Notes under the pieces: generated by a model
The model's database searches: none
The model's input: only the letters and a program-made list of their open reading frames with translations
Told to the model about the DNA's origin: nothing
IMG/VR virus record: IMGVR_UViG_3300045927_000077
Location: 1 to 35,566 of that record
DNA length: 35,566 nt
Strand: one strand, 5' to 3'
From: a virus
Shown: positions 1 to 35,566 of the stretch, one piece after another
Position numbering within the stretch: the first letter of the stretch is position 1
Layout of the letters: the number at the start of each line of letters is the position of its first letter
Made by a program: the position numbers and the translations under genes

Positions 1-338
1 CTCGCCGGCAAAAATCGTTTTGAATTTTTTGGGTCCCCCCCGTTCCAAGGATGGGTGGGCGATAACGGTTGTCCGCTCACATCACAACCGAATTGATTTT
101 CGTTTTTGCTTTCTTGTTTGTGAATGATCGAATGACAAGAGCGGCACAGCACAACAAGGTTGAGTGGTTCGAGGAACAATGCAGGCGCACGACTGACATA
201 CTTGCGATGGTGAATGATTGCGTTAGGTAGATCGTTGAACAGTGACACGCCACACCGCACACACTGATAGCCACCATCATGCAAGGCTTGGATGCGCACG
301 CGATTACGCCATGCGCGTAAGTCGTAAAGCTTCGATAT
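1..338 (-). CDS. HNH endonuclease, C-terminus cut by window edge
   Basis: Reading leftward, the frame gives a short HNH nuclease: N-terminal SKLYDLRAWRNRVR, a first zinc pair CVRC, the HH core (AIIHHRKYV), then LNLVVLCRSCHSIIH with the second Cys pair, and a closing PLSPTHPWN block typical of phage HNH proteins. The frame is still open at base 1, so the end is missing. Such enzymes commonly sit beside the small terminase and take part in DNA packaging at cos. That fits the terminase at the other end of the window. The start is odd: a strong GGAGG (344-348) lies 5 nt before an ATA codon at 338, exactly where ATG is expected. The nearest standard alternatives are TTG at 350, without a ribosome site, or GTG at 299, which would remove the conserved N-terminus. 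Family is clear; the start is uncertain. Confidence 0.85.
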   Translation of the reverse strand, partial: MSKLYDLRAWRNRVRIQALHDGGYQCVRCGVSLFNDLPNAIIHHRKYVSRAPALFLEPLNLVVLCRSCHSIIHKQESKNENQFGCDVSGQPLSPTHPWNGGDPKNSKRFLPA

Positions 339-348
339 ATTTTCCTCC

Positions 349-387
349 AAAAGAAAACGCGCCCGTGAGGCGTGACGCCGGGCGCGT
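349..387 (-). terminator. Rho-independent terminator before the HNH gene
   Basis: On the minus strand ACGCGCCCG (387-379) pairs perfectly with CGGGCGCGT (365-357). The 13-nt loop itself contains GGCGT-ACGCC symmetry. A TTTTCTTTT tract follows. It lies between the DUF6362-like gene and the HNH gene, so it would attenuate leftward transcription into HNH and terminase. The HNH ribosome site starts immediately after the T tract. Confidence 0.8.
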
Positions 388-443
388 TGCTCCTACCTAA
401 ACCAATGGAGTGGTTCGCTTAGTACACCAAGTTCGCGGGAATT

Positions 444-2256: not shown

Positions 2257-2260
2257 GACG

Positions 2261-3731: not shown

Positions 3732-3962
3732 ATGACAGTGCCAACAACTTGGACTTACCAACGCGCATCGGTGCCGCGCATGGCGGAAGCCTTGAACCGC
3801 GATGCCGAAAACCTGCGAAACCGCGTGCAATGCCGGCAACTGCTTGGCTATGCCGGTTGGAACGATGACGCCATCACCAAGCATTTAACCGAAGCGATGC
3901 ACTTGGCGCGCGGCATGCGCGCCGCCGAAATCAACGACTGGGTTCGAAAGCAGGCGAAATGA
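3732..3962 (+). CDS. Small helical hypothetical protein
   Basis: A 76-aa ORF starting MTVPTTWTYQRASVPRMAE, mostly helical and rich in Arg and Ala (ALNRDAENLRNRVQCRQLL, then ITKHLTEAMHLARGMRAAE). No family is recognised. The stop overlaps the YqaJ start as ATGA, so it is coupled to the recombination genes and is probably the first gene of that operon. The ATG at 3732 overlaps the TGA of a short upstream plus-strand frame, which could mean yet another coupled gene or be chance. Earlier in-frame ATGs (3639, 3681) are unlikely. Confidence 0.6.
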   Translation: MTVPTTWTYQRASVPRMAEALNRDAENLRNRVQCRQLLGYAGWNDDAITKHLTEAMHLARGMRAAEINDWVRKQAK

Positions 3963-4879
3963 GCGAACACCACAAGCCGAAAAACCGCGCCGATTGGTGG
4001 GCGTTACGCAAGCAAGACGTGACGGCATCGCGGATCGGCGCACTAGTCACGAACCATCCGTATTGTTCGGCCTATGGCCTATGGGCGGAAAAGACCGGGC
4101 GCCTGGTCAGTGATGCCGATGACGATAGCCCGGCCAAGCGCCGCGGCCGCTTGCTTGAAAACGTCGCCGCCGACATGGCGGCCGATGAAATGCCGGATGC
4201 CAAGGTGTGTAAGAACGGCTTGGAATACTACCGCGATGGCACGCTGAAAATCGGCGCCACGCCGGATTTGTTCGTGGATCATCCCGAACGCGGGCCGGGT
4301 GTGGTCGAGCTCAAAAACATCGAACCATCGATTTACAAAACCAAATGGCTTGACGGCGAACCGCCGCTTTGGATCGGCTTGCAATGCTTGACCGCGGCCA
4401 AGTTGGTCGGCGCCGAATGGGCGGCGATCGGCGCGTTGCGGGTCGGCTATGGCGTGCACTTCGATATCGTGCCGGTGCCGCTGCACGCCGGCGCGTGGCA
4501 AGCCCTGCAGGATGCGGCTGGCGCGTTCTGGCAATCGGTCATCACCGACACGCCGCCGGCGCCGGACTATGCGCGCGATCATGAAATCATCAAGCAGCTA
4601 AACCAGTTTTCCGAACCGTTCACGCTGGACTTGTCGGACGACAAAGAATTCTTGATCGGTGTCACCGAACGCGAGCGCATCAAAAAGTTGGTTACCGAAT
4701 ACGGCCACCAATTGGATCGGCTGGACGGCATGATCAGGCACCGCGCCGGCACCGCGGAAGCCATCACCGTTGGCGATTTCCGCGTCACCCTGAAAACCCA
4801 AGACGTGGCCGGCTACATGGTGCAACCGCGCAAACAACGCCCAATCCGAATTTACAAGCGCAAGGCCAACGCGGCATGA
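3959..4879 (+). CDS. YqaJ-family viral exonuclease
   Basis: A 306-aa phage recombination exonuclease (lambda Exo/YqaJ fold). Motifs in order: WWALRKQDVTASRIGALV (W..R...TAS), LWAEKTGRL, RRGRLLEN with Glu67, GATPDLFV with Asp103, GVVELKN with Glu117-x-Lys119, and LQCLTAAKLVGAEWA, the conserved Gln helix. All metal-binding residues are present. The family degrades one strand of dsDNA ends to load an annealase, and a RecT gene follows after one small gene, making a two-component recombination system. The C-terminal ~100 residues (ERERIKKLVTEYGHQLDRLD) form the usual helical extension. Start and stop both use ATGA overlaps. Confidence 0.92.
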   Translation: MSEHHKPKNRADWWALRKQDVTASRIGALVTNHPYCSAYGLWAEKTGRLVSDADDDSPAKRRGRLLENVAADMAADEMPDAKVCKNGLEYYRDGTLKIGATPDLFVDHPERGPGVVELKNIEPSIYKTKWLDGEPPLWIGLQCLTAAKLVGAEWAAIGALRVGYGVHFDIVPVPLHAGAWQALQDAAGAFWQSVITDTPPAPDYARDHEIIKQLNQFSEPFTLDLSDDKEFLIGVTERERIKKLVTEYGHQLDRLDGMIRHRAGTAEAITVGDFRVTLKTQDVAGYMVQPRKQRPIRIYKRKANAA

Positions 4880-5112
4880 CCCACCACACCGACAACGTGA
4901 TTGAACTTAGCCACTTGGCCGAAATGATCGATATGGCGGAAGCATTGGTGGCGCGCATTCGCACCGGCCAAACGCTGGCGTTCGCCCTGGTCAAACACCA
5001 ACGCGATGGCACTACGCACCAATACGCCAGCAAGGCGCCGAACTATCACATGATCCATTCCGGTGTCGCGATCCTCGCCCACCGGCTAGCCGCCATGGGG
5101 AATTTCAAATGA
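4876..5112 (+). CDS. Small protein between exonuclease and RecT
   Basis: A 78-aa ORF with ATGA overlaps at both ends, so it is tightly coupled to YqaJ upstream and RecT downstream. It has a helical N-terminus (VIELSHLAEMIDMAEALVARI) and a His-containing second half (HQYASKAPNYHMIHSGVAIL). No family is recognised. Position suggests an accessory factor of the recombination pair, for example a bridging or modulating subunit, but nothing in the sequence proves it. Confidence 0.7.
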   Translation: MTHHTDNVIELSHLAEMIDMAEALVARIRTGQTLAFALVKHQRDGTTHQYASKAPNYHMIHSGVAILAHRLAAMGNFK

Positions 5113-6170
5113 ACGTGGCCCAAGACATGATCGAATTCCAACACGGATTGGAAAAGCGCACGCCGGAATACGCCAAGGTTTTGCCAAGCAACATCACGCC
5201 GGCGCATTTCCAGCGGGTCGCCACCACCGCGGTAACGCTCAATCCCAAGCTTTTGAATTGCGAACGGCTATCGCTTTGGGTTGCGTTGATGAAAAGCGCG
5301 CAAGACGGATTGTTGCCGGATGGCCGCGAAGCCGTGATCAAGGTTTACAAGGACAAGGCCGGCTATGAACGGATGGTTGGCGGCATCCGCAAGCTGGTCC
5401 AGCAATCCGGCGAGATCACCCGGTTTGAACAAACCGTGGTGCATTCCAATGATCGGTTTGAGTACCGGCTAGGCGATCAGCCGCGCATCGAGCACGCGCC
5501 GGCGATCGAGGATCGCGGCAAGCCGATCCTGGTCTATTCGATCGCACAATTTCCCGATGGCACGCTGAGCCGGGAAGTGATGACGGTCGCGGAAGTTGAA
5601 GGTATCCGCGCCATGTCGCCGGCATCCGATGGCCCGGCGTGGTCGCATCATTGGGGCGAAATGGCGCGCAAAACCGTAGCCAAGCGCCACGCAAAAATTC
5701 TGCCCATGTCCAGCGAAGCCCGCGCCGTGATCGATCGCGACAATGAACCGTTTGAGTTTCCGGCCCTTGCGGCGCCTCCCAAGCAGCACGCGCCGGAACA
5801 AAGCCGCCCGCGTCTAGCCGATCAGTTTGACGCCTTGGGGGAATACAGCGAACCCAACGAGCCCAAGCCGGAAACCGAAAAGCGAACACGCGGGCGGCCG
5901 CGTAAGGTCAACCTAAAACCCGGTGCGTCCACGGACGATTGGGAACCACCGCCGCCAAAAACGATCGATGAAATACCGGGAAGCGAACCGACGATGTTTG
6001 AAACGGTGTTGCAAGAAACCGAACAAACGGAAGCATTCGAAACGCCCGATTACGAGCAAGGCCGCAAGGATGCGATGGCCGGCCGCCTCGAATGCTTGAA
6101 CGCCGATATCAAAGCCGCGCCGTACCGTTACCGGGAATGGCAACGCGGTTTCAACAGCGTGAAAAAATGA
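5109..6170 (+). CDS. recT: RecT single-strand annealing protein with unusual C-terminal tail
   Basis: A 353-aa protein. Residues 1-205 match RecT: LLNCERLSLWVALMKSAQDG, LLPDGREAVIKVYKD, VGGIRKLVQQSGEI, an IEHAP-type strand, and WGEMARKTVAKRHAKILP. RecT proteins anneal complementary single strands produced by the partner exonuclease. After a Pro/Glu-rich linker there is an AT-hook-like RTRGRPRKV at about residues 258-266, a second acidic linker, and a 40-residue C-terminal unit (YEQGRKDAMAGRLEC, then APYRYREWQRGFNS). That unit has the G..A..G ... P..Y...W..GF pattern of Rmf/CrpP-like small basic domains. The usual RecT is about 270-330 aa, so the tail is extra. The family call is firm; the tail assignment is by eye. 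Confidence 0.9.
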   Translation: MNVAQDMIEFQHGLEKRTPEYAKVLPSNITPAHFQRVATTAVTLNPKLLNCERLSLWVALMKSAQDGLLPDGREAVIKVYKDKAGYERMVGGIRKLVQQSGEITRFEQTVVHSNDRFEYRLGDQPRIEHAPAIEDRGKPILVYSIAQFPDGTLSREVMTVAEVEGIRAMSPASDGPAWSHHWGEMARKTVAKRHAKILPMSSEARAVIDRDNEPFEFPALAAPPKQHAPEQSRPRLADQFDALGEYSEPNEPKPETEKRTRGRPRKVNLKPGASTDDWEPPPPKTIDEIPGSEPTMFETVLQETEQTEAFETPDYEQGRKDAMAGRLECLNADIKAAPYRYREWQRGFNSVKK

Positions 6171-9451: not shown

Positions 9452-9670
9452 ATGCCGCGTGGCCCGTGCAACTTCCGACAACGCGACCTTGAAGCAACCA
9501 TTAGGGCGTTGCTGGCCGTTGGCGTGCCGCGTGAACACGTGCGGGTTGAATTTGGCAAGGATGGCAAGCCGATTGTTTCCAGTAGTCCGCCAATTCAACC
9601 GGCCCAACCAACGGGGAAAGCATCGGCATGGCTACCAAAGCAAAAGCCAAAAACCTACCGTGGCGCGTAA
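9452..9670 (+). CDS. Short RQRD-type ORF preceding the integrase (excisionase candidate)
   Basis: A 72-aa protein, MPRGPCNFRQRDLEATIRAL then GVPREHVRVEFGKDGKPIV. This FRQRD...A..A.GV..V.V..DGK.IV pattern belongs to small ORFs found directly before tyrosine integrases across rhizobial phages and islands. Its last 43 bases overlap the integrase. It may be a recombination directionality factor, but it lacks the classic winged-helix excisionase motif. I chose ATG 9452 because homology begins there; TTG 9431 lies upstream inside the palindrome region. Confidence 0.6.
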   Translation: MPRGPCNFRQRDLEATIRALLAVGVPREHVRVEFGKDGKPIVSSSPPIQPAQPTGKASAWLPKQKPKTYRGA

Positions 9671-12792: not shown

Positions 12793-12797
12793 TGGCG

Positions 12798-24350: not shown

Positions 24351-24353
24351 CGG

Positions 24354-26036
24354 TCACGTTCCCAACATTGCAAAACGCGCTTGCCGCGCCGGCGCCGCCC
24401 GCGCAATGTCGCGCGCCAAGCGGCGATTGTTTTCCGCAATGATGGAGCGAAACGCGCCTTCGCTCATAGTTGATCCGCGCGCATCGATATTGGTGATTGG
24501 CGCAAACGTGTTACCACCGGCGCCGCCCTTGGTCACGCTGTTAGGTAACACCATGCCGCCAGCGTTCGGCACAAACAATTCCGGCCCGCGTTCGCCTACC
24601 ACATAGGCTTGGCCGCCACGCACCGGCCCGCCGGCTTGGCGGCCGAACAGTTTAAGCAATGGCGATGGCCCGCCGCCGGCCGTTGGATTGAAAAACATTC
24701 CAAACGCTTGGTTGATGGCGGATCGCGCCAACGTCTTGCTAAGATCGCGCAACACGTCATTCAACTTTTTGCCTTCCAAAATACTATCGGCAAAGGCATT
24801 CGAAAGCGCCGAACCCAATTCGCGCGATGCGCTGGCCAAGCGGCCATATAGTTCCTTTTGCACCGCCAGATTTTGCGCCGCCTGCCCGGCCAACTGAATT
24901 TGTTTTTTGCGTTCCTCCGTCAACGCTTGTTCGGTGGTCAAGCCTTGCCGCCGCGCGGCTTCCTCCAACAATGCGGTTTGCTTCAAGGCTTCCCGTTCGC
25001 CAGCGGTTTTGCCAACCGCTTCGCCTTCCGCCTGTATCAACAGCAAATGTTTGGAAAGCTGGTCATCAAACCGCAACAGCCAATCAAACCCTTCCTGGAT
25101 CGGCTTCGCCCAATTAACGCCCGATGCGCGCTTGTTGACTTCGATGGGCAACCGGTTGGCATCGTCCAGCGCCTTTTTGATCAACAGGTGTGCCTTTTCG
25201 AAATTAGTCGCCATGTTTTTGGTGAAGTCCGCCAATGGCCCGCCAACCGTTGCCGCCTGAATGGCGCCGGCGATGCGCGCCAACATGTCAAAAACCTTTT
25301 CGAATGCCGGCAACACTTCCGCAACCAACCGCGTCCCCCAACCGGACATTGCCGCGGATACGTCAATAAACATCTGCTTTAGCTTTTCCGAGTGCTGCAC
25401 CAAGCGGCGCATTTCGGGTTCAATGTTTTTTGCTTCGTCCTTCATCTTGCGGAAATGTTCCGGCCCTTCGCCCAACACTTTCACCCATTGTTCGGTCAGG
25501 CCGAACATTTTGGCGATTTCAATTTTCTCAAATTCCGAACCGGCCCGGCTCATCAACGTGGCGGCAATTTCCAATCCCTTGTTGACGTCAACCACAAGGC
25601 CGTTTTGTTCTTTGTACTTGATGTTGTTTTGATCGAGAAATTCGGAAAGCCGCGTGGTGTGGCGGTTCATTTCGTCCATCTTGGCGGCCGCCGTGTCCAA
25701 TCCCTTGAACATTTCGTCATCGCCAATGCCGGCCGATCGCGTGGTGAACCCAATGCGTTGAATGGTTTGCAGATCAAGCCCGGTTTTGCGCGCGGCATCG
25801 CCAAGCGCAATCATTTGATTGAACGCCTTGGTTATTTGTTCGACAACTTCCTTCATCGCCGCTTCGATCAGCTTGACGGTGCCAACACCGATCGCGCTGC
25901 CGATCGCGATTTGCGAAGTCTTGGTTTCAATGTTTTTAATTTCGCGTTCGGCAATCAACCCGGCTTCCTTCAATTGCTTTTCGAATTGATCCAGCCGCGC
26001 CGAAATGGCGACAATCAGTTGCGGCGTATCAGCCAT
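24354..26036 (-). CDS. Tail tape measure protein
   Basis: A 560-aa, largely helical protein: an N-terminal coiled coil (RLDQFEKQLKEAGLIAEREI), a hydrophobic centre (VLPAFEKVFDMLARIAGAIQ), a charged helical part (EEAARRQGLTTEQALTEER) and the lambda-H-type C-terminal motif GGPVRGGQAYVVGERGPELF with VPNAGGMVLP. Tape measure length sets tail length. By the usual scaling of roughly 0.15 nm per residue this would give a tail near 80-90 nm. ATG 26036 lies inside the end of the frameshifted chaperone gene, as in lambda, with GGAAAATAA upstream. Confidence 0.9.
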   Translation of the reverse strand: MADTPQLIVAISARLDQFEKQLKEAGLIAEREIKNIETKTSQIAIGSAIGVGTVKLIEAAMKEVVEQITKAFNQMIALGDAARKTGLDLQTIQRIGFTTRSAGIGDDEMFKGLDTAAAKMDEMNRHTTRLSEFLDQNNIKYKEQNGLVVDVNKGLEIAATLMSRAGSEFEKIEIAKMFGLTEQWVKVLGEGPEHFRKMKDEAKNIEPEMRRLVQHSEKLKQMFIDVSAAMSGWGTRLVAEVLPAFEKVFDMLARIAGAIQAATVGGPLADFTKNMATNFEKAHLLIKKALDDANRLPIEVNKRASGVNWAKPIQEGFDWLLRFDDQLSKHLLLIQAEGEAVGKTAGEREALKQTALLEEAARRQGLTTEQALTEERKKQIQLAGQAAQNLAVQKELYGRLASASRELGSALSNAFADSILEGKKLNDVLRDLSKTLARSAINQAFGMFFNPTAGGGPSPLLKLFGRQAGGPVRGGQAYVVGERGPELFVPNAGGMVLPNSVTKGGAGGNTFAPITNIDARGSTMSEGAFRSIIAENNRRLARDIARAAPARQARFAMLGT

Positions 26037-26609
26037 TTATTTTCCGCGCTTCAATGATGGCTTGGCGTTGCGCATCGCGTTCCAACATGCGGTCGAATTC
26101 ATCCGGCGTTATGCCCCTTGGCCGTTCGGCTTCATCGCTGCCGTGGCATCGGTTCCAGCCGTCAACGGCGGCCGCGAATTCCCAAAGGCTGGCGCGGTTG
26201 AGTTGGTCGATTGACCATCCAATGGCCGCGGCGTTTCCGATGATGGTTGACCATCGGAATGGTTTGGGGTCGCCGCTTGGTTTTTTTTTAAGTCGTCATC
26301 CGCCGGCGGAAATAGCGCCGCGGTCAGGACCGACAGCGCCGCCGGCGTGTTGGGCAACACGTTCGGCGGATAGCAATAGCGGGCAACCTTGGCCAACGCC
26401 TTGGTTGGGTCCATACCGCCACCGATCAGAGCAAGCCGAATGGTGTGGATGATATCGTCCGTCCAGGGTCCGCCGCGCATGAGGCGTTGCAGAATTTCCA
26501 CCGCCGGCGCGTTGCGCAAGCTTTCCAATTCGCGCAATTCCCCGATCGCCAAGCGAAAGCGATATTCGCCATCACCCCATTGCAGCGTGATCGAACCGTC
26601 ACCACTCAC
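26029..26609 (-). CDS. Frameshifted tail assembly chaperone (G-T-like fusion)
   Basis: Reading the first 109 codons from GTG 26609, slipping back one base on an A9 run (26289-26281), then continuing in the -1 frame gives a 193-aa protein. The new frame encodes KPFRWSTIIGNAAAIGWSID, RASLWEFAAAVDGWNRCHG and GITPDEFDRMLERDAQRQA. This is clearly protein-like and corresponds to the downstream half of siphovirus tail chaperones (LWEFAAAVDGWNR type). The TGA at 26031-26029 lies just inside the tape measure start. In lambda the equivalent fusion gpGT binds the tape measure and recruits tube subunits. The unshifted product ends at 26109. Confidence 0.75.
26109..26609 (-). CDS. Tail assembly chaperone, unshifted form (GTA gp10-like)
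   Basis: A 166-aa protein from GTG 26609, overlapping the tail tube stop as GTGA. Residues 1-105 match GTA-gp10-type chaperones: ITLQWGDGEYRFRLAIGELR, ELESLRNAPAVEILQRLM, WTDDIIHTIRLALIGGGMDP. After the A-rich codons (LKKN) the sequence becomes low-complexity (Ser/Thr/Pro/Asn), as expected of the short non-shifted tail. Chaperones of this kind keep tape measure and tube protein soluble and are made in excess over the frameshifted form. Confidence 0.75.
   Translation of the reverse strand: MSGDGSITLQWGDGEYRFRLAIGELRELESLRNAPAVEILQRLMRGGPWTDDIIHTIRLALIGGGMDPTKALAKVARYCYPPNVLPNTPAALSVLTAALFPPADDDLKKNQAATPNHSDGQPSSETPRPLDGQSTNSTAPAFGNSRPPLTAGTDATAAMKPNGQGA
26237..26291 (-). promoter_or_regulatory. 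Programmed -1 frameshift signal
   Basis: On the minus strand TTA is followed by AAA AAA AAC, a run of nine A (26289-26281) containing the slippery heptamer A AAA AAA. After 23 bases there is an 8-bp stem with one G-T pair and a 5-nt loop, CCGATGGT-CAACC-ATCATCGG (26257-26237), a possible stimulator. It sits exactly where the two halves of the tail chaperone change frame. Confidence 0.7.
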
Positions 26610-27058
26610 GGGTTAGGTACCCAAGTCACCGCGCCATCGCTGGCCATCGTCACCGCAACGCCGACTTTGCTGCCCTGTTCGGCGGTGACGTTGAAACCCG
26701 GCAACAAAAATTTGCCGGTCCACTTGCCGCCCAACGCGGCGTTCGGTGCGTCAACGTCAAGCTGCACTTCGACGTTGATCGATGCGGTGCTTTCGTTGAA
26801 CGCTATCCAGGTATCCAAGTCGCCCATTGACAGGATACCCTCGCCGGAAATTTCCGCCGACATGACGGTGACCGCGCGTTCCGCCCACGCCGGCGCTTCC
26901 GGGTCGTCGCAATCCGGCACCGCGATATCGTTCATTTCCTTTGTGAAGTTGATGCCCTTGGAATTCAGGCCGCACGGCGCGGTGAACACTTCGGGCGAAC
27001 CGCCATCGCCAAGCTTGATAAGAAATTGGCTTGACCGGCTAGTGATAGGCTTGGCCAT
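26606..27058 (-). CDS. Major tail (tube) protein
   Basis: A 150-aa protein with tube-protein features: MAKPITSRSSQFLIKLGDGG, FTAPCGLNSKGINFTKEMND, IAVPDCDDPEAPAWAERAV, a central GILSMGDLDTWIAFN and a beta-rich end (KWTGKFLLPGFNVTAEQGS). Size, position before the chaperone and the CDDPEAPAWAER-type motif match rhizobial siphovirus and GTA tail tubes. A terminator-like hairpin lies directly upstream, and GGAG 9 nt before ATG 27058 gives strong initiation. Confidence 0.85.
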   Translation of the reverse strand: MAKPITSRSSQFLIKLGDGGSPEVFTAPCGLNSKGINFTKEMNDIAVPDCDDPEAPAWAERAVTVMSAEISGEGILSMGDLDTWIAFNESTASINVEVQLDVDAPNAALGGKWTGKFLLPGFNVTAEQGSKVGVAVTMASDGAVTWVPNP

Positions 27059-27074
27059 CGTTGATCACTCCATG

Positions 27075-27098
27075 AAAAAACCCGCCGTGCGGCGGGCT
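27075..27098 (-). terminator. Rho-independent terminator upstream of the tail tube gene
   Basis: On the minus strand CCCGCCG-CA-CGGCGGG (27096-27081) forms a perfect GC-rich hairpin with a minimal loop, followed by TTTTTTC (27080-27074). It lies in the 69-base gap between the tail completion gene and the tail tube gene, in the middle of the late unit. It would reduce read-through from head to tail genes or mark an RNA 3' end. Confidence 0.8.
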
Positions 27099-27127
27099 TC
27101 AAAGTCGTTGGCCACTTTGGTTTCGCT

Positions 27128-27541
27128 TTAGATCGGTTCACAGTTGGCGCGCACGGTGATGACCGCGTGCGCGGTGATGCCGTCCGGGTCGCGCAAATAT
27201 TGGGTTCGTTCGATTGTCATTTCGACAAGCCGTTGCGGTGTGTCCAGCGTTAGCGGCGCTTCATCCAGTGCGGCGGCCACCGCCACGCCCAGGCGCTTCA
27301 CCGCAACCGTATCCGGCCCGGCCGCCCATCCGTCCAGCGTGACAAACACCGAACCGCCATCAATGCAATCACCCACATCGGGCAACAGATCGAACGGGCC
27401 AAACGAAACGTAAGGCTTGGTAGCGTTCTGCGGCACCGCGTCATAAATCCGGCCGGCAACGATGGCGTTCACGCCGGCATCGGCTTTCAATGCGGCCACG
27501 ATGGCTTTCTGAATTTCAAGGGACGGATCGGCCAGGCTCAT
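27128..27541 (-). CDS. Tail completion protein (DUF3168)
   Basis: A 137-aa protein: EIQKAIVAALKADAGVNAIV, AGRIYDAVPQNATKPYVSFG, DGGSVFVTLDGWAAGPDTVA, and TPQRLVEMTIERTQYLRDPD with an HAVITVRANCE end. This is the DUF3168 pattern. The family sits between neck proteins and tube protein and helps to terminate or join the tail. ATG 27541 overlaps the stop of a 28-aa peptide gene (ATGA). TTG 27547 is an alternative start. Confidence 0.8.
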   Translation of the reverse strand: MSLADPSLEIQKAIVAALKADAGVNAIVAGRIYDAVPQNATKPYVSFGPFDLLPDVGDCIDGGSVFVTLDGWAAGPDTVAVKRLGVAVAAALDEAPLTLDTPQRLVEMTIERTQYLRDPDGITAHAVITVRANCEPI

Positions 27542-27624
27542 GGCCAACCCAACATGAACGCCAACACCGCAACCACCACCAGCAACACCACCACCGCCAA
27601 TGCCGTTTGCCGGTTAAGCGTCAT
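27538..27624 (-). CDS. 28-aa membrane peptide in the neck gene cluster
   Basis: A very short ORF reads MTLNRQTALAVVVLLVVVAV then LAFMLGWP: a single hydrophobic helix with a basic N-terminus. Both ends overlap neighbours by ATGA (upstream stop 27623-27621, downstream start 27541), exactly the pattern of the real genes here, and AAAGGGCGG lies just upstream of the ATG. Its function is unknown. A membrane peptide among head-tail joining genes is unexpected; it might be an accessory lysis or membrane-targeting factor. Confidence 0.55.
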   Translation of the reverse strand: MTLNRQTALAVVVLLVVVAVLAFMLGWP

Positions 27625-28034
27625 GGTCCGCCCTTTAGCGACACCAATTTATTGATGGCGGCCACCGCTTCGGCTTTGATGGCGCGGCGGATGCCGGCGC
27701 GCTTCTGCCGATAGGTCGGCCAAAAGAACGGCCGCGCCGCCATCTTTTCGGTGCCGAATTCGTTGGCCAAGGCGTAGTCATACGGCCCGGCCGGCGCCGG
27801 GTGCGTGGTGGTGTCGCCGCCGGCCCGCACCACCGCGCGCAACGGCGATCGGCTGGATGGTTCAACCCGGATCGAACGCCACAACGTGGCTTCCTTGCGC
27901 GGTACGGTGATGCGCATCGCTTCGGCCAATTCGTGCGCCTGCCGGAAAATTTCGGCACGGACTTGCGCCCGCGTGACTTCCGGCAATGCCGCCAACACCC
28001 GTTGGAATTTGCTAACCGATTGGTTGGTGGCCAT
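27621..28034 (-). CDS. HK97 gp10-like neck/tail completion protein
   Basis: A 137-aa protein: FQRVLAALPEVTRAQVRAEI, HELAEAMRITVPRKEATLWR, SIRVEPSSRSPLRAVVRAGG, PYDYALANEFGTEKMAARPF, FWPTYRQKRAGIRRAIK. The YALANEFGT...ARPFFWP motif is diagnostic of the HK97 gp10/tail completion family. It joins head to tail. The start uses TAATG overlap with the previous gene; the end overlaps the 28-aa peptide gene. Confidence 0.85.
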   Translation of the reverse strand: MATNQSVSKFQRVLAALPEVTRAQVRAEIFRQAHELAEAMRITVPRKEATLWRSIRVEPSSRSPLRAVVRAGGDTTTHPAPAGPYDYALANEFGTEKMAARPFFWPTYRQKRAGIRRAIKAEAVAAINKLVSLKGGP

Positions 28035-28375
28035 TAGCGGAAGATCACCAACTGAAACGCGCGATCGGCCGCTTGGTTGATCGGATAGTCGGCCGCGCCG
28101 GATCGGATTTTCAGGAAGCCTTCGCGCAAGCTTGCGCCGCTGCCATCAACCAACACCACGCGATCGGGATACATCGGCACCAACAATTCGCCGGCCACCG
28201 TCCAAATATCGCGGAATTCGGCCGGCGTGTCGGACGGCGCCAGTTGGAAACTGACATTGGCCGGCGTCCAGTCCGCCGGCATCCGAAACCGTAACAGCGT
28301 ACCGCTTGATATGTCAGCCGCATCGGAAAGCGATTGGCCGGCCGGGATGGTCACGGTAGCTACGGTGATCGGCAT
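28034..28375 (-). CDS. Minor structural protein, beta-rich
   Basis: A 113-aa protein: MPITVATVTIPAGQSLSDAA, LRFRMPADWTPANVSFQLAP, PAEFRDIWTVAGELLVPMYP and IRSGAADYPINQAADRAFQL. It is beta-sandwich-like in composition. Similar proteins occur between head-closure and gp10-like genes in rhizobial phages, and a capsid or neck decoration role is a fair guess. No named family is certain. Confidence 0.6.
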   Translation of the reverse strand: MPITVATVTIPAGQSLSDAADISSGTLLRFRMPADWTPANVSFQLAPSDTPAEFRDIWTVAGELLVPMYPDRVVLVDGSGASLREGFLKIRSGAADYPINQAADRAFQLVIFR

Positions 28376-28378
28376 GGA

Positions 28379-28729
28379 TCAAACCGCCACGCCGGCTTCC
28401 GCCAGCATGTCCATAAACTTGCCGCGCTCCACCGTGCCTTGGTACGGATCAACCGCGGTGCGAATGTTGTATTCCGTGCCATCCATCATGTTGGTTACCT
28501 TCCAATCGGTGCGGATTTGCGCGGTGTCGGGCGATCGGCGCACCCGGATCACCACCGGTTGGCGGCCGGCCAAGCGCGCGGCTTCGATGGTTTCGCCGCC
28601 AAGCCGCGGCGTGATGTTGCCCCACACCGTGAAGCGATCCAGCCAACCGGTGGAAACATTGCCATATTCATCCTCAACATCATCGCGCTGCGAAAATTTC
28701 ACGCGGTAACGCAGATCGCCGGCGGTCAT
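28379..28729 (-). CDS. Head-tail adaptor (head closure) protein
   Basis: A 116-aa protein: MTAGDLRYRVKFSQRDDVED, YGNVSTGWLDRFTVWGNITP, RLGGETIEAARLAGRQPVVI, VRRSPDTAQIRTDWKVTNMM and YNIRTAVDP. This LR..V.F.....D.YGN...GW......W..I.P..G.E...A.R..G..P pattern identifies the SPP1 gp16/HK97-type head closure family. It plugs the connector and presents the tail interface. The ATG overlaps the upstream stop (ATGA). Confidence 0.85.
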   Translation of the reverse strand: MTAGDLRYRVKFSQRDDVEDEYGNVSTGWLDRFTVWGNITPRLGGETIEAARLAGRQPVVIRVRRSPDTAQIRTDWKVTNMMDGTEYNIRTAVDPYQGTVERGKFMDMLAEAGVAV

Positions 28730-28953
28730 CGTTGAAACGGCCGCGGCTTCCAGACGTGCGCGGCATCAACCGGCGCTTGCCCGGTCAACAATTCAACGTG
28801 CGCCGGATATACGATATCGCCGGCATCGGCGCGCTGGATCGCCAGCGCCGCGGCATCGATCACATGCAAGTAGGTAACGCCGGCTTTGAACCGCACGGTG
28901 ATCTTGCGGTGCGGCCGGTAGTCATAATCGCGGGTCAGGTAAACGGTTTTCAT
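28726..28953 (-). CDS. Small hypothetical protein, neck region
   Basis: A 75-aa protein starting MKTVYLTRDYDYRPHRKITV, then FKAGVTYLHVIDAAALAIQR and HVELLTGQAP. It looks like a small beta-barrel-type protein. ATG 28953 overlaps the connector gene's stop and its own stop overlaps the head closure start. Short KTVYLTRDYDY-like proteins at this place are known in related phages without assigned function. Confidence 0.7.
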   Translation of the reverse strand: MKTVYLTRDYDYRPHRKITVRFKAGVTYLHVIDAAALAIQRADAGDIVYPAHVELLTGQAPVDAAHVWKPRPFQR

Positions 28954-29534
28954 GCGCGCGGCGTCCACCACGTTGCATTTACCTTCAAATCCGGTGCCAC
29001 GTATTCGCGGCCGGGTATGAGTATCTCCCTGTGTTCAAAAAGATGAGCGGCGTGGCGCAACACCACGTCAAGCACATCGGGCGGCAACCGCGCCGCCGCG
29101 GTATCGGGCGGTGGCGGCATTTGCGCGCCACACGTCAACGTCAATGCCAAGTTGATGACGTGGGCGCCAACCAACACTTGCAACGGAACGCCGTGGATAC
29201 TGTCCCACTTCATCGCCACGGAATAGTTGGCCGCCACATCGGCCGGCGGCTCGCCGCCGGTTGCGGTCAAGCTTTGCACCGGCCGCACCGGAATGTTGGC
29301 CGCGCCATCGATAAATTCCGATGACAACGGCAACCACTCAATCACCGTAGGGTTTAAACACACTTCGTTGACCGCCTGAAAATTTCCGATCGCGCGTTGC
29401 ACCGCGTAGCGCACCGCTTCATCCTCGGCATTGTGGTCAACCCGCATATGCTGCTTAGCCAGCACCAACAGCGCATCCGGCAAGGCATCGATGTTTTCCG
29501 ACACCACCAAATGACGCGCCGGCTTCCAAGTCAT
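28950..29534 (-). CDS. Head-tail connector protein (gp6/gp15-like)
   Basis: A 194-aa protein. The first ~100 residues match the connector family: LVLAKQHMRVDHNAEDEAVR, YAVQRAIGNFQAVNEVCLNP and PVRPVQSLTATGG. The latter part (INLALTLTCGAQMPP, LPPDVLDVVLRHAAHLFEHR) supplies the C-terminal helices with the usual hydrophobic LRHAAHLFEHRE. It forms a ring below the portal. Coupled at both ends by ATGA. Confidence 0.8.
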   Translation of the reverse strand: MTWKPARHLVVSENIDALPDALLVLAKQHMRVDHNAEDEAVRYAVQRAIGNFQAVNEVCLNPTVIEWLPLSSEFIDGAANIPVRPVQSLTATGGEPPADVAANYSVAMKWDSIHGVPLQVLVGAHVINLALTLTCGAQMPPPPDTAAARLPPDVLDVVLRHAAHLFEHREILIPGREYVAPDLKVNATWWTPRA

Positions 29535-30175
29535 GCCGCCGCCGCTTCGGTGACGAATTCAAACGTTTTGATTTCGCCGCTGGTGAACTCAACAATCAAG
29601 TGGCCGTGTTCAACCGTCATGTCGGCAATGCCGATGCCCGCCGGGCCGGCCGGCCCCCGCTCGCCGCGTTCGCCCCGATCGCCCTGCCGGCCCGGCTTGC
29701 CGCGTTGGACGATTTGCATCCAAGCGTTATCGCTGCCCGGCAACTCGCCGGGATTGTCTTTTGTCGCCGCCCAGGCGCCGCCATCGTGCGCCACCACATC
29801 GTTGGTCGCGTAGGTTTCTTTTGGGTCATAGGCGCGGCGAAACCGCCACGGAGCGAGTGGTGAACCCGCTGGCCCCGCCGCGCCCGGTTCACCGGGATCG
29901 CCCTTTTCGCCCGGCGGGCCAACATTGCCGGGCGGGCCGGGCAATCCCGGTTCGCCATCCTTCAAATCCATATCCTTGATCAGCGCCGCCACGTGATCGC
30001 GCATCTTGTGTTCAAGTTCTAAAAACCGAACGCCGATCACGTTGCCGTATTCGTCAATCCGTTCACGCTGCCGCGCCACGTCCGCCGACAAGGCATGATC
30101 AGCGGCAAGCCGCGCCGCGCGTTCCTCCCCGATCACGTCACCAATCGCGGCGATCAATTCATGCGGCGCGTTCAT
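29531..30175 (-). CDS. Collagen-like virion protein
   Basis: A 214-aa protein with a helical N-terminus (IGEERAARLAADHALSADVA) and two Gly-X-Y collagen-like segments, DGEPGLPGPPGNVGPPGEKG continuing to GPAGSP (residues ~73-105) and KPGRQGDRGERGERGPAGPA (~160-180). Between them is a compact Trp-rich module (WRFRRAYDPKETYATNDVVA, DNAWMQIVQRG) like carbohydrate-binding/5_12-type domains. It ends in a beta-strand domain (MTVEHGHLIVEFTSGEIKTF). Such trimeric collagen-like proteins form phage fibres or appendages. Its place between portal and connector genes hints at a head or neck appendage. The start overlaps the portal gene by 17 bases. Confidence 0.8.
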   Translation of the reverse strand: MNAPHELIAAIGDVIGEERAARLAADHALSADVARQRERIDEYGNVIGVRFLELEHKMRDHVAALIKDMDLKDGEPGLPGPPGNVGPPGEKGDPGEPGAAGPAGSPLAPWRFRRAYDPKETYATNDVVAHDGGAWAATKDNPGELPGSDNAWMQIVQRGKPGRQGDRGERGERGPAGPAGIGIADMTVEHGHLIVEFTSGEIKTFEFVTEAAAA

Positions 30176-31559
30176 ATTGCCTCACAGCTTTTCGCAATTG
30201 ATAAGCCAGCACGGCACGGCTTTCCTCACGCTCGCGGTCATCCGGTGCGGGCGCTGGCGCCGGCGTTGGCTTGCTTGGTTCGGTGACCGCGGAGAGCGGC
30301 AACAACTGTTGTTGCACCCGCGGTTCATCGCCGGCTTGCACCGGCGGCAAGCCTTCCAATTCGCGCGCTTCGTTCGGCGCAAAAATGCCGCCCTGCACGC
30401 CGCGCACTTCGGCTTCAATGCGTTCCTTGAAATTAGTGCGCAACAGGGTTTTCACATCAAGTTCGCACCACTCCCGGCCGGCCGGCACCACGTCCAGCGC
30501 AAAGAACGCATCAAACGATTTTTCGATATGGTTGATCAGCCAACCCAAGCCAGCCGCCAGCCATTCTTGCATTTGCGCTTCGGCGGATTTCACGGTGCCG
30601 CCATCGGCTAGGCCAACGATCATCGGCGGCACGCCGAACACCGCGGCCACCGCGCGATCGGACAATTTCAACTGTTCGACAATTTGGGCGTCAACGTTGG
30701 ACACCGACACCGGGTTGAATTTCAAGCCGCGGGTCAGGATCGGCACGCCGCCAGCGTTCATGCCTTGCGCGTGTTCGTTCCAAAGCGCACGCATTTCATC
30801 CACTTGCGCCTTGGTCAAGACTAGATCGGTTTGCAGCACGCCGGACGGCCGCGACATGTTGTTGGCGAATGTGGTGGCCGATTTGTTGATGGCGAGCCGC
30901 GCCGCCAATTCCGGCGCCAAGGCTTGCAACCACGTCACGCCAACCAACGGATGGCGCGGCGTTTTTAGTTTGATGTGCAGCACATCGCGGGCCGGCACGA
31001 TCAGCGAACGCGAACCGAACATTTCGAAATTCTGCAACGGCGGTTCGGTGATTTCGTAGAACACTTCCCGCGTGGATTGGCCAACCACGGTGGCTTCGCG
31101 CACCGAACATTGCCGCGGATCGGTCCAGTGTAGAGCGGTGATTTCGTTGCGATCGTTTCTGGCCGCCAGCGAATACGAATTTCCGTTGTAGAGCAGCGAT
31201 GAAATCACATGCACCAAAAAGTCGGATGGCGTCTGGTAGGAATTCGGCACCCGCAACACCCGCGACAAGGCGGATGAATTGACGACTTCGCTGCCGCCGG
31301 TTTCCTTTTCGCGCATGTGGTAGCCGGGCAATTGCGCGATGGCGCGCACGTAAGCCCACACGCAAGCTTCCACGATCGAACAACCCGGATACGGCAACGG
31401 GTCGTAGTCCAGTTGCCAGAAATTCCAGAATTGCCCCCATTCGTGCGGCAACCAGCCATCGCGCAAATGGTACGGGCCGGCGTGATAGTTGCCCTCGCCG
31501 GCCGGGTTAATTTTCTGGCGCGATGTGAACGCCCGCGCCAGATTGGCTAACACGCCCAT
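30159..31559 (-). CDS. Portal protein (HK97 family)
   Basis: A 466-aa portal. Landmarks: CVWAYVRAIAQLPGYHMREK, LRVPNSYQTPSDFLVHVISS, LLYNGNSYSLAARNDRNEIT, DVLHIKLKTPRHPLVGVTWL, FANNMSRPSGVLQTDLVLTK and LSDRAVAAVFGVPPMIVGLA, then FAPNEARELEGLPPVQAGDE. All belong to the HK97-type portal, the dodecameric channel for DNA entry. The C-terminal tail is Pro/charged and variable. It lies downstream of the capsid gene, whereas the common order is terminase, portal, protease, capsid. Confidence 0.93.
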   Translation of the reverse strand: MGVLANLARAFTSRQKINPAGEGNYHAGPYHLRDGWLPHEWGQFWNFWQLDYDPLPYPGCSIVEACVWAYVRAIAQLPGYHMREKETGGSEVVNSSALSRVLRVPNSYQTPSDFLVHVISSLLYNGNSYSLAARNDRNEITALHWTDPRQCSVREATVVGQSTREVFYEITEPPLQNFEMFGSRSLIVPARDVLHIKLKTPRHPLVGVTWLQALAPELAARLAINKSATTFANNMSRPSGVLQTDLVLTKAQVDEMRALWNEHAQGMNAGGVPILTRGLKFNPVSVSNVDAQIVEQLKLSDRAVAAVFGVPPMIVGLADGGTVKSAEAQMQEWLAAGLGWLINHIEKSFDAFFALDVVPAGREWCELDVKTLLRTNFKERIEAEVRGVQGGIFAPNEARELEGLPPVQAGDEPRVQQQLLPLSAVTEPSKPTPAPAPAPDDREREESRAVLAYQLRKAVRQYERAA

Positions 31560-31562
31560 CGG

Positions 31563-31962: not shown

Positions 31963-33906
31963 CTACCAGCCAACCGATGCAATGGTTTGCACCATCCCGG
32001 TTCGCCGCATGATCCAAGTCACGTAAAGCGACATGCGGATGGCAACGCTGTCAGTCTGGAACAGCGAACGCGCCGGCGCCGCAACCGTGGCCGGCGAGCC
32101 CACCGTGCCGATCGCCAACGGCGTGGTGTCCTCTTCGTGGATGGTCGCCTCGGTCGAAACCGCAAAGCGCGGCGTGTCGCCGGTTGCGGTGACGAAGTCG
32201 GCGGCATCGATCGCGATGATGCGGCCGGCGGTTACGGTTTGACTGACGATGAAGCGCGCGTTCATCTTGGCGCCCGCCGCTTCCACGCTGCCAAACACGA
32301 AATCGCCGGTGGTGGTCTGCACCAAGCCAAGCGACAGTGCTTGTGCCGGGTTGATCAGCATCACGATGTTGCGGCCGCCGCCGGCGGCCAGGATCGCGGC
32401 CACAAGCTGTTTCAAGTCCGCGATCATCTTTTCCGCCGCGGTGCCGCTCGCCGTTGCGGTCAGCGGCGTGACGCCGTTGAGCAACCCGGCCGGCCGCACG
32501 CCGGTTGACTTGGCGGTGGCATCGATCAGGAACGTGTCAAGCTGTTCGGACGTGTCGTCCGTCATCGCTTGCCGGATGATGCCTTCAATTGCCGGCGATG
32601 AATAAAGCGCCATTTCCTCCGTGAAAGTGGAAATTACCGCCAGTTTGTAGGGTTCCAGCGTGACGGTTGACAGGCTGGCTTTCTTGACCGGCTTGGCGCC
32701 GCCTTCCGCAACCCACGCGCCGGTTATCTTGCTGGTCGTGGTCCGCGTTGGGATTTTGATTGAGTTGATGCCGTTGCCGAAGCTTAGCCGCTGGCCGGCG
32801 TTGGAAAGTGGGCCATAGATCGAACTTGCCAACAGCCGATCCATGAACGAAACATTGGCGGAAGTCACCAATTCGGCCGCCCAACCCGCCACCGTGGTTT
32901 GCGCCGGGTTGACCGCGGCGCGCAACACCACGTTCATGGCTTCATCGTTGAGATGCCGGCCGCGATCGTATTCGCGCGCAATCTTTTCGATCGGTTCGCG
33001 AAGCGATTGCGCGGACGTCCAGATCGCCAACGAGCGGAACAGGTGTTCGTGCGGTTCAATCTGCTTTTTCGGCACCGCGAACACTTGCGGCTTGGCCGGC
33101 GGCAGAATTTCGCCGGATTTGGCCGGCGGTTCGTTGCCGTTGATCGGCGGCATGATCGCGCGCTCGGCACGCTGCAGGCGTTCAACGTCCTTTTGCGCGA
33201 CTTCGATTTCATCCGGCAAGGCGCCGAATTGAGTTTGTTCCTCCTCGTCCAATTCGTCTTTCTTGGACAAGTCGGCAAGCCGATCGCGCATTGCGGTGAC
33301 CCGCTGTTGCGCGGCGGTAATCTTTTGTGAAAGCGTCATCGGAACCGCCTTTAGTTGGCGGTGGGTTTCGGCTGACACGCCGGCGGCCGCGGCTGTTCGT
33401 TCAAGGCGTTCGATGGCGGACACGCCCAACACCTTGGCGACAACATCACGCGGAAATTGTTTGGCGATCGCCAACGCATTGGCGTTGGCCGGCACACTGA
33501 CAAGCGAGCATTCCAGCAATTCGCTTTGCACGAACCGGTAGCCGTTTTCGTTCTTGCCTAGCGGTTCGATTTTTTTCGGCTGGAAGCCAACCGACACCGC
33601 GCGCAAGATGCCTTGCCGCACCAGTGCGCGCACCATGTTGACGATCGGCGTATCCGGGTCGCGTTCGGCCAGATCGAGCCGGCCGACAAGGCGGCCGTTC
33701 TCAATTCGCACATCGCGCCAGGTGCCGATCACCGCGTTGCGTTCGTGGTTGAACAGCGCAATGGGGTTGCGATCGGGCGCAAAGTTTTTCAAATCCCATC
33801 CGGTTTGATCGATCACATCGCCGCACCGATCCACCGATGCATCGGACATGACGAATTCCAGCGGATCGCCACCGGGCGGTGGCGCCGCGCGTTCGTGGTA
33901 TTTCAT
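31963..33906 (-). CDS. Prohead protease-scaffold-major capsid fusion
   Basis: A 647-aa polyprotein. Residues 1-160 are an S78-type prohead protease: PLEFVMSDASVDRCGDVIDQ, IALFNHERNAVIGTW with His54, LRAVSVGFQP and the ELLECSLVSVPANANALA signature. Residues ~190-250 form a coiled-coil delta/scaffold part (ALPDEIEVAQKDVERLQRAE). From ~290 onward an HK97-fold capsid follows (GPLSNAGQRLSFGNGINSIK, IPTRTTTSKITGAWVAEGG, FTEEMALYSSPAIEGIIRQA, MLINPAQALSLGL). An in-frame ATG at 33339 (residue 190) has AAAGGCGG seven bases upstream, so a 458-aa capsid precursor could also be made alone. ATG 33906 is preceded by GGAAAATCC. The protease would cut the fusion during maturation. Confidence 0.9.
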   Translation of the reverse strand: MKYHERAAPPPGGDPLEFVMSDASVDRCGDVIDQTGWDLKNFAPDRNPIALFNHERNAVIGTWRDVRIENGRLVGRLDLAERDPDTPIVNMVRALVRQGILRAVSVGFQPKKIEPLGKNENGYRFVQSELLECSLVSVPANANALAIAKQFPRDVVAKVLGVSAIERLERTAAAAGVSAETHRQLKAVPMTLSQKITAAQQRVTAMRDRLADLSKKDELDEEEQTQFGALPDEIEVAQKDVERLQRAERAIMPPINGNEPPAKSGEILPPAKPQVFAVPKKQIEPHEHLFRSLAIWTSAQSLREPIEKIAREYDRGRHLNDEAMNVVLRAAVNPAQTTVAGWAAELVTSANVSFMDRLLASSIYGPLSNAGQRLSFGNGINSIKIPTRTTTSKITGAWVAEGGAKPVKKASLSTVTLEPYKLAVISTFTEEMALYSSPAIEGIIRQAMTDDTSEQLDTFLIDATAKSTGVRPAGLLNGVTPLTATASGTAAEKMIADLKQLVAAILAAGGGRNIVMLINPAQALSLGLVQTTTGDFVFGSVEAAGAKMNARFIVSQTVTAGRIIAIDAADFVTATGDTPRFAVSTEATIHEEDTTPLAIGTVGSPATVAAPARSLFQTDSVAIRMSLYVTWIMRRTGMVQTIASVGW

Positions 33907-33921
33907 GGCTGGATTTTCCGT

Positions 33922-35541
33922 CTAGGCGATCAACGCCGCGGTTTCGATTGGCGTTTGGCCCGATACCTTCAAGCCGCCGATCGCCATCAAGGCGGCCACC
34001 GCCAAGTCAATTCGGCCGTACAGCCGGCGCTTTTCCGGCTTGCGGTTTTGTGCCGGCGCGCCGGGCGCATGAACCAACGTGGTGTTGGCGATGCACCAGC
34101 GCAACACCGGATGCGCACCGTGAACAATCCGGCTTTCGGTGGCCGCCACTTCGAACGCCGCCACCGCAGGTGAGAACGATTTCCAGCCCTGCACGAACGG
34201 CACCAACGGCAACACCGCGCCAAGCTTGTCGAGGTGTTGGCGCAAAGCATTAATGTTCCAACTATCGTAGGCGATCGAAACAAGGTCCATGCCTTCAACC
34301 GCCTGCAAAATATCCGATAACACATAGGCGTAATCGATCGCCAAGCCGGGCGTGGCGCGCAAGAAACCCTGGCGGTGCCAAACGTCGTACGGCGCGCCAT
34401 CGCGCGCGGTGCGTAGCGCCAAGGTTTTTTCCGGTGTCCATGCCAGCGGCTTCAAATGCATCCGGCCGCGGTCATCCTCCGCCGCCAGCACGAACGCGGT
34501 CAGATCGAGCCGCGCCGACAGGTCCAGCCCGCCGAACACCGGCCGGCCATCGGTGAATATGGTTTCGTCCACCGCTTCGTTGCCAAGCGCCCAAACGGTC
34601 GGCGTGCAAAGCAATTCGGCTTGCGCGGCGATGCGCTGGTTGCAGCGCAAATTGCGGAACGCGCTTTCCGCCGATGGCAACCGCCGCGCTTGCTTGGCTT
34701 CGTTGAAAATCGATTTTGCATCGAGGAAAATGCCAAGCGCCGGATTGCACGCCCGGATCACCGCTTCATCGAACACGTCCGCCTCAGCCGGCGCGCAAAC
34801 CAAATCCACCACCACGCTTGGGTCATTGCTGGCCAGGCCGTCATCGATCAACTGGCTTAGCGGGTGTTCGTCATCCTCGGCTTGGGTTGAAAGCACAATG
34901 CCCAAGGTGCGCTTGCGCTTGCCGCTTCCGGTGATCAGCGCATCCAGCAAGCGCCGATCGTTGGTGCGCGCCAATTCGTCATAACCCCAAAATGACGGTG
35001 CCAAACCGTGGCCGGCTTTGTGGTCGGCCGAAAGCGCCTCATAGCGCGAACCGATGCCCGGCCCGCTGATAACTTCAATCATGCGCCGTTGGCTACCGCG
35101 CCGGATATAAACCGCGGCGCCCAATTCATCCACCGCGGCAATCACCGCGCTCATTTCCTCAAAAATGATCGCCGCCTGTTGCCGATCAACGCCGGCCGAA
35201 TAACACTCGCCGCGCGGTTCGGCTTCCGGCCCCAACAAGTGGCACAACATCAAGCCGGCAACCAAGCCGGTTTTGCCGTTGCCGCGCGGTTCGGAATGCA
35301 CCGCCAAGCGAACATCGGTGGCACCATAAACACGTTCGATGAATTGCCGTTGGTTCGGCAACAACTTGAATTTGCGGCCGATCAAGATGCCTTTGGTGAT
35401 CGGTAAAAATTCAAGAAAAGCGATCACGCGATCAGCACGCGACAATCCTTTTTTTTGCCACGGCAATTTTCGCTTGCGTTTGCCGTTCAATCGAAGTGCA
35501 GCTTCGCGCTGCAATCGTGTTGAATTAGCGGTGCCGGTCAT
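33922..35541 (-). CDS. terL: Terminase large subunit
   Basis: A 539-aa packaging motor. ATPase part: a variant Walker A PRGNGKT at residues 85-91 (after LAVHSEP), Walker B SFWGYDELART with Asp188-Glu189, and the coupling motif GIVLSTQAEDD (~214-224). Nuclease part: GGLDLSARLDLTAFVLA with Asp340, a second acidic site in SIAYDSWN, and YGRIDLAVAALMAIGG near the C-terminus. It belongs to the HK97-like/Terminase_1 type. It cuts and pumps DNA into the prohead through the portal. The start ATG overlaps the TGA of the frame that enters from the right edge. Confidence 0.93.
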   Translation of the reverse strand: MTGTANSTRLQREAALRLNGKRKRKLPWQKKGLSRADRVIAFLEFLPITKGILIGRKFKLLPNQRQFIERVYGATDVRLAVHSEPRGNGKTGLVAGLMLCHLLGPEAEPRGECYSAGVDRQQAAIIFEEMSAVIAAVDELGAAVYIRRGSQRRMIEVISGPGIGSRYEALSADHKAGHGLAPSFWGYDELARTNDRRLLDALITGSGKRKRTLGIVLSTQAEDDEHPLSQLIDDGLASNDPSVVVDLVCAPAEADVFDEAVIRACNPALGIFLDAKSIFNEAKQARRLPSAESAFRNLRCNQRIAAQAELLCTPTVWALGNEAVDETIFTDGRPVFGGLDLSARLDLTAFVLAAEDDRGRMHLKPLAWTPEKTLALRTARDGAPYDVWHRQGFLRATPGLAIDYAYVLSDILQAVEGMDLVSIAYDSWNINALRQHLDKLGAVLPLVPFVQGWKSFSPAVAAFEVAATESRIVHGAHPVLRWCIANTTLVHAPGAPAQNRKPEKRRLYGRIDLAVAALMAIGGLKVSGQTPIETAALIA

Positions 35542-35566
35542 TCGATGCTTAAGGGCTCTTTTTGAC
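35538..35566 (-). CDS. 3' end of an upstream gene, possibly small terminase
   Basis: A minus-strand frame open at the window edge ends in ...KEPLSIE and a TGA that overlaps the large terminase ATG (ATGA), the joint used by most genes here. Only nine codons are visible, so the product cannot be identified. The small terminase subunit is the expected neighbour and is otherwise missing from the window. Confidence 0.4.

What the first reader, a model, noticed from the sequence alone, without database searches (positions are those of the whole stretch)
1..35566. Near-total absence of GANTC sites
Reading the whole plus strand for GAATC, GATTC, GACTC and GAGTC (the site is palindromic, so one strand suffices) I found only two, GAGTC at 11358 and at 18429. 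Roughly 130 would be expected for 35.5 kb at ~60% GC, while GATC, EcoRI-type GAATTC and near-misses such as AAATC or CAGTC are frequent. GANTC is the target of the alphaproteobacterial cell-cycle methylase CcrM and of HinfI-type enzymes. Such depletion implies long selection against the site, either to escape restriction or to avoid CcrM-linked methylation effects on phage replication or transcription. Both surviving sites fall in stretches of foreign codon use (cargo gene and tailspike beta-helix).
Basis: partly seen in the sequence, partly recalled or inferred. Interest (0 to 1): 0.8.

Follow-up and report, generated by a model that had tools for sequence, protein, structure and literature searches.

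The report
Phage genome purged of GANTC sites
A soil phage that probably infects alphaproteobacteria has lost almost every copy of one five-letter DNA word, GANTC, and related phages with the same kind of tail have done so repeatedly, as expected if something in their shared hosts punishes that word; the general phenomenon is known, and the cause is not settled.

Summary
The expectation is 130 by base composition, 74 by a Markov model, and 38 in 36 genes when protein and codon usage are held fixed (observed 2 there). GANTC is the most depleted of 255 palindromes tested. Selection is ongoing: relative L110 carries 1,994 substitutions, should have gained about 20 sites, and has none. The record is a temperate HK97-type siphophage (integrase, RecE/RecT). 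An alphaproteobacterial host is inferred, not identified. Cultured alphaproteobacterial phages and sampled host DNA show only the usual 2-6-fold depletion, with or without a phage GANTC methylase. Among 142 related contigs depletion is two-state, changed at least 8 times on a portal tree, and follows the tail module more than head genes. That points to a host-borne pressure. Two relatives deplete GAWTC but not GASTC, which fits restriction-type specificity better than CcrM alone. Most likely this is escape from a GANTC/GAWTC-cutting defence in certain CcrM-bearing hosts; a CcrM/GcrA-linked cost remains a strong rival. The pelagiphage precedent (PMC9516812) makes this a new member of a known kind.

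The parts
1..35566 (.). Temperate HK97-type siphophage genome almost devoid of GANTC; right end probably a physical (cos-type) end
   Evidence: 3 GANTC vs 74-130 expected; protein families; two independent assemblies end at the same base
11358..11362 (+). Surviving site GAGTC, in a 94-aa ORF (11097-11381) of no known family
18429..18433 (+). Surviving site GAGTC in the C-terminal part of the tailspike gene
18657..18661 (+).
18258..20537 (-). Tailspike/tail fibre with pectin-lyase-like domain; N-terminal 329 residues shared with G006, C-terminal part not
   Evidence: PHROG and Pfam hits; blastp ranges
20550..30175 (-). Tail module: central tail fibre J, tip proteins, tape measure 24354-26036, tail and head-tail connector genes; similarity in this module tracks GANTC depletion among relatives
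30159..31559 (-). Portal protein (0 GANTC in all 17 extreme relatives vs 36.1 expected)
31963..33906 (-). Major capsid protein fused to prohead protease
33922..35541 (-). Terminase large subunit, HK97 type (0 GANTC in 15 extreme relatives vs 55.2 expected)
3..350 (-). HNH endonuclease at the left end, cut by the record end
3959..6170 (+). RecE-like exonuclease (3959-4879) and RecT annealing protein (5109-6170)
9628..10773 (+). Tyrosine integrase: marks the phage as temperate; relatives lie in GcrA-bearing genomes
12157..12834 (-). GH25 endolysin

Best explanation
The phage lineage has been purged of GANTC (above all GAWTC) by purifying selection imposed by its hosts. The hosts are most likely certain CcrM/GcrA-bearing alphaproteobacteria that also carry an activity which cuts unmethylated GANTC or GAWTC (HinfI- or TfiI-like specificity), with the host's own DNA shielded by methylation. 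Each new site in any gene lowers the chance that incoming or freshly replicated phage DNA survives, so new sites do not persist and sites remain mainly in freshly imported segments. Shown: motif-exact depletion, ongoing purifying selection, a two-state distribution among relatives, repeated gain or loss, and linkage to the tail module. Inferred: an alphaproteobacterial host, and cleavage as the cost.
For: Codon-preserving test 2 vs 38; lowest of 255 palindromes. About 20 and 11 new sites expected from the substitutions in L110 and L196, none seen. Homologous terminase and portal genes: 0 vs 91 expected in extreme relatives, 74% and 94% retained in ordinary ones. Two-state distribution over 142 contigs; at least 8 changes of state on the portal tree. 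Depletion follows the tail module: 33 of 40 contigs with a window-type tail protein are extreme vs 9 of 26 with a similar portal. GAWTC-only depletion in G009 and G664. Near-complete elimination is typical of orthodox Type II sites (PMC6286503).
Against: No host and no cutting enzyme identified. CcrM is described as an orphan methylase in all alphaproteobacteria (PMC3973325). Site elimination is notably rarer in temperate phages (PMC6286503). Five contigs with the window-type tail keep sites (0.40-0.85: L260, L272, L274, L282, L009). Contigs are not independent and many come from a few metagenomes.
Confidence: 0.5

Rival explanations
1. CcrM/GcrA-linked cost without cutting. GANTC in phage DNA becomes hemi- or fully methylated by the cell-cycle methylase and attracts GcrA and RNA polymerase, or ties up CcrM, disturbing phage transcription or replication; a counterpart of GATC loss in enterobacteriophages under Dam.
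For: Alphaproteobacterial setting and GcrA-like genes in several relatives. Other alphaproteobacterial phages encode their own GANTC methylases (PMC5537653). A prophage operon in Brevundimonas depends on GcrA (PMC7987155). Dam/GATC parallel (references in PMC5014478).
Against: Fifteen cultured alphaproteobacterial phages and many relatives keep sites (0.2-0.6), GcrA-carrying relatives included (G005, G666, G668). Sites are lost inside genes everywhere, not just near promoters. GAWTC-only loss in G009 and G664 does not fit an enzyme indifferent to N. CcrM marks do not guide mismatch repair in Caulobacter (PMC3973325), so the MutH-type cost known for GATC is unlikely.
Confidence: 0.35
2. The phage itself deploys a GANTC-directed nuclease against host DNA or rival phages and spares itself by lacking the site.
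For: HNH and VRR-NUC proteins are present.
Against: Neither is confined to extreme relatives: HNH also in G004, G664, G666 and G669; VRR-NUC in G004 and G665. No nuclease shared only by extreme phages was found.
Confidence: 0.05
3. Composition, codon usage or mutation bias, without selection on the word.
For: Codon usage does lower the expectation from 130 to about 40-75; hosts and cultured phages are also 2-6-fold low.
Against: Codon- and protein-preserving shuffles never fall below 24. One-mismatch words such as AANTC and GANTT are frequent. Homologous genes in relatives keep the sites. Random placement of the observed substitutions would create about 20 sites.
Confidence: 0.03

Closest known systems
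GANTC-depleted pelagiphages and a SAR11 provirus (Seong et al. 2022, PMC9516812)
   Same: Phages of CcrM-bearing alphaproteobacteria (here inferred) that clearly lack GANTC, with about half of the relatives depleted; cause unresolved.
   Different: Here temperate HK97-type phages from metagenomes with high-GC genomes, tested with codon-preserving and homologous-gene controls; depletion changes repeatedly within one family and follows the tail module; some relatives lose GAWTC only.
Restriction-site elimination in phages of Type II R-M hosts (Rusinov et al. 2018, PMC6286503)
   Same: Observed/expected below 0.1 for one exact Type II recognition word.
   Different: The phage has an integrase, whereas elimination is notably rarer in temperate phages; the host and its enzyme are unknown, and CcrM has no described nuclease partner.
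GATC (Dam site) counterselection in enterobacteriophages (McClelland 1984; Deschavanne and Radman 1991, cited in PMC5014478)
   Same: Phage loss of the site of an orphan regulatory adenine methylase of the host.
   Different: CcrM marks are not used for mismatch repair in Caulobacter (PMC3973325), so the mechanism proposed for GATC does not carry over.
Alphaproteobacterial phages with CcrM-like methylases (phiLM21 and relatives, PMC5537653)
   Same: Also a phage adaptation to the GANTC site in alphaproteobacteria.
   Different: The window has no such methylase, and carrying one does not go with a different GANTC density in the cultured panel.

Membership tests
Type II restriction-site elimination in phages | Observed/expected below 0.1 for a known Type II site | tested here: met
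   GANTC 0.04 (Markov) and 0.05 (codon shuffle); GAWTC 0.03
Type II restriction-site elimination in phages | Depletion specific to the recognition word | tested here: met
   Lowest of 255 palindromes and of 256 XYNZW words
Type II restriction-site elimination in phages | Host carries the cognate restriction enzyme | not testable with these tools
   Host not identified
Type II restriction-site elimination in phages | Usually a non-temperate phage (a tendency, not a requirement) | tested here: not met
   Integrase at 9628-10773
GANTC-depleted phages of CcrM-bearing alphaproteobacteria | GANTC depleted well below host and sister phages | tested here: met
   0.02 vs 0.16-0.41 in sampled genomes and 0.2-0.8 in sister phages
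GANTC-depleted phages of CcrM-bearing alphaproteobacteria | Host is a CcrM-bearing alphaproteobacterium | tested here: inconclusive
   Indirect: integrase relatives in GcrA genomes, GcrA-like genes in sister phages
GANTC-depleted phages of CcrM-bearing alphaproteobacteria | Depleted phages cluster by phylogeny | tested here: met
   Clustered (0 of 500 shuffles as low) but with at least 8 changes on the portal tree
Phages carrying a CcrM-like GANTC methylase | Phage-encoded GANTC methyltransferase | tested here: not met
   No PF01555, no phiLM21-type methylase, no D/N/S-PP-Y/F/W ORF of 120 aa or more in the window

The most novel reading that the evidence does not exclude
Certain alphaproteobacteria use the cell-cycle mark of CcrM as the self-mark of an unrecognised GANTC/GAWTC-cutting immunity, so that a regulatory methylase doubles as the modification half of a restriction system, and phages that enter by one tail type are forced to drop the word.
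Probability: 0.2. Interest if true: 0.85.

Novelty: new member of a known kind. Interest (0 to 1): 0.45.

Why it matters
It offers a natural experiment inside one phage family: relatives with similar head genes either keep or eliminate GANTC, and the state follows the tail and so, by inference, the host. That makes the open question raised for pelagiphages testable: whether GANTC loss is restriction escape or a CcrM/GcrA effect. The GAWTC-only cases point to which enzyme specificity to look for, and GANTC density could serve as a marker of host group.

Tried and rejected
1) Either-or idea (phages carry a GANTC methylase or drop the site): rejected. Cultured phages with the methylase (0.30-0.55) and without it (0.22-0.59) do not differ, and the relatives read in full carry no phiLM21-type methylase. 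2) Phage GcrA as the cause: GcrA-like genes occur in extreme (G007, G008, G009) and ordinary (G005, G666, G668, G669) relatives alike. 3) Phage nuclease unique to extreme phages: none found. 4) Host identification by terminase, integrase and tail protein in whole genomes: only distant prophages, with normal GANTC where read. 5) CtrA boxes TTAA-N7-TTAA in the window: none. 6) GGNCC looks low under codon shuffle (0.46) but not under the Markov model (0.88), so it was put down to codon-context effects. 7) DNA matches in cultured phages for the first 25 kb: none. 9) No HinfI-like enzyme was searched for in hosts, because no reference sequence or family was at hand.

Full report
WHAT WAS CHECKED. 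An exact scan gives three GANTC sites in 35,566 bases: GAGTC 11358, GAGTC 18429, GAATC 18657. Base composition predicts 130, a maximum-order Markov model 74. A shuffle that keeps every protein and its codon usage predicts 38.1 +/- 5.1 in 36 genes, with 2 observed and no shuffle of 500 below 24. Among 255 gapped and ungapped palindromes GANTC is the most depleted (3 vs 73), and among all 256 XYNZW words it is lowest (0.04, next 0.53). GATC, GAATTC, GANNTC and GANNNTC are not comparably affected.

WHAT THE WINDOW IS. A virus record whose first 25 kb has no DNA match in cultured phages. It has a terminase, portal and protease-capsid fusion of HK97 type, tape measure, tail fibres, GH25 endolysin, RecE/RecT, a tyrosine integrase, and an HNH protein at the left end. 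Its right end coincides with the ends of two independent assemblies of the same phage, about 25 bases from the terminase start; several other relatives' contigs end at similar distances. The end is therefore probably a cos end and the record nearly complete. No DNA methyltransferase, CcrM or GcrA gene was found in it.

HOST. Not identified. The five best integrase relatives in a phylum-wide sample all lie in genomes with GcrA, the partner of CcrM. Seven of 17 virus records of the phage family that were searched encode a GcrA-like protein, as phiCbK does (PMC3556154). This supports an alphaproteobacterial host; nothing shows it to be a rhizobium.

BASELINE. Alphaproteobacterial genomes hold on average at least two-fold fewer GANTC than composition predicts (PMC3973325). 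Sampled host DNA here gives 0.16-0.41 and fifteen cultured alphaproteobacterial phages 0.22-0.59, with or without their own GANTC methylase. The window at 0.02 lies roughly ten-fold or more below both.

SELECTION IS ONGOING. L110 differs from the window by 1,994 substitutions in 11,972 aligned bases. If these were placed at random among sites of the same base and codon position, 19.8 new GANTC would be expected; none is present. For L196 the figures are 10.6 and none. In terminase and portal genes of the extreme relatives there are 0 GANTC against 91 expected under codon shuffle, while the same genes in ordinary relatives keep 74% and 94%.

DISTRIBUTION. Over 142 non-redundant related contigs the ratio to base composition is two-state: 32 contigs below 0.05, ten between 0.1 and 0.2, and the main body at 0.4-0.8. 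On the portal tree well-supported branches force at least eight changes of the extreme state, so it was gained or lost repeatedly within one family. Short contigs make some individual ratios noisy.

TAIL LINK. Relatives with equally similar head genes but no window-type tail genes (G003, G004, G005, G664) have ratios 0.18-0.79. Relatives sharing 3-10 of 11 tail genes (G006-G009, L110, L160) have 0.00-0.09; G665 and G666, with weaker tail matches, have 0.45 and 0.55. From this I predicted that contigs fetched by a tail protein would be extreme. With the 27128-27547 protein as query, 33 of 40 contigs at 58% identity or more have ratios below 0.1 (median 0.04), against 9 of 26 for portals of the same similarity (Fisher p 1.7e-4). 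The contigs are not independent, many come from a few metagenomes, and five of the forty stand clearly apart (0.40-0.85). Tail proteins set host range, so the simplest reading is a host-borne pressure.

WHICH PRESSURE. Extreme phages lose GAWTC more than GASTC (19 of 600 versus 35 of 224 Markov-expected). Under codon shuffle G007 and G008 lose both; G009 and the partly depleted G664 lose GAWTC (0.05, 0.16) but keep GASTC at 0.33 and 0.44, close to the 0.39-0.76 of ordinary relatives; the window stands at 1 of 36.9 and 2 of 11.2. CcrM acts on all GANTC, whereas GAWTC is a known restriction specificity (TfiI, own knowledge). This leans towards cleavage, but CcrM is described as having no nuclease partner in alphaproteobacteria (PMC3973325), and site elimination is notably rarer in temperate phages (PMC6286503). 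The CcrM/GcrA rival therefore keeps about a third of the weight.

SURVIVORS. Two of the three remaining sites lie in the C-terminal part of the tailspike. The depleted relative G006 matches only the first 329 residues and G007 only a short middle stretch, so this part is not shared. This fits recent import, but two sites are too few for a test.

KNOWN OR NEW. GANTC depletion has been reported in about half of 33 pelagiphages and in a SAR11 proviral region, with the mechanism left open (PMC9516812), and elimination of restriction sites by phages is a known strategy (PMC6286503). This is a new, controlled member of a known kind. What is added: the two-state behaviour inside one family, the tail link and the GAWTC/GASTC split.

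Noticed in passing
window 13677-15455 (-): A 74% GC gene for a 592-aa Ala/Gly/Thr-rich protein made of ATGTGTA-like repeats, with a non-repeat start; no Pfam or PHROG family. An overlapping plus-strand frame 13714-15024 is its probable mirror artefact.
   Followed up: partly
L228-L231; G005:8634-9101, G007:29388-29720, G008:23977-24360, G009:36726-37163, G516:C454:23102-23593: GcrA-like proteins (PF07750), homologues of the CcrM-dependent transcription factor, are common in this temperate phage family (7 of 17 virus records searched); the window lacks one.
   Followed up: partly
L260, L272, L274, L282, L009: Contigs with the window-type tail protein that nevertheless keep GANTC (0.40-0.85); possible recent host changes or recent tail swaps.
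   Followed up: no
G009 and G664 (L045-L047, L232-L233): GAWTC depleted (0.05 and 0.16) while GASTC stays near the family baseline; a different specificity from G007 and G008, which lose both.
   Followed up: partly
G008:24402-25622 (L031): An SPPY-type N6/N4 methyltransferase (PF01555) in a GANTC-depleted relative; the motif differs from the DPPY of CcrM-type enzymes.
   Followed up: no
starts of L003, L005, L010, L015, L017, L018, L021: Contig ends just upstream of the terminase share a TTTT..CACGC-like sequence, probably the cos end of this phage family; the window's own end reads differently.
   Followed up: no
window, whole: TCGNCGA occurs once against 14.3 expected by the Markov model, the second most depleted palindrome; could be chance among 255 tests or a second avoided site.
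   Followed up: no
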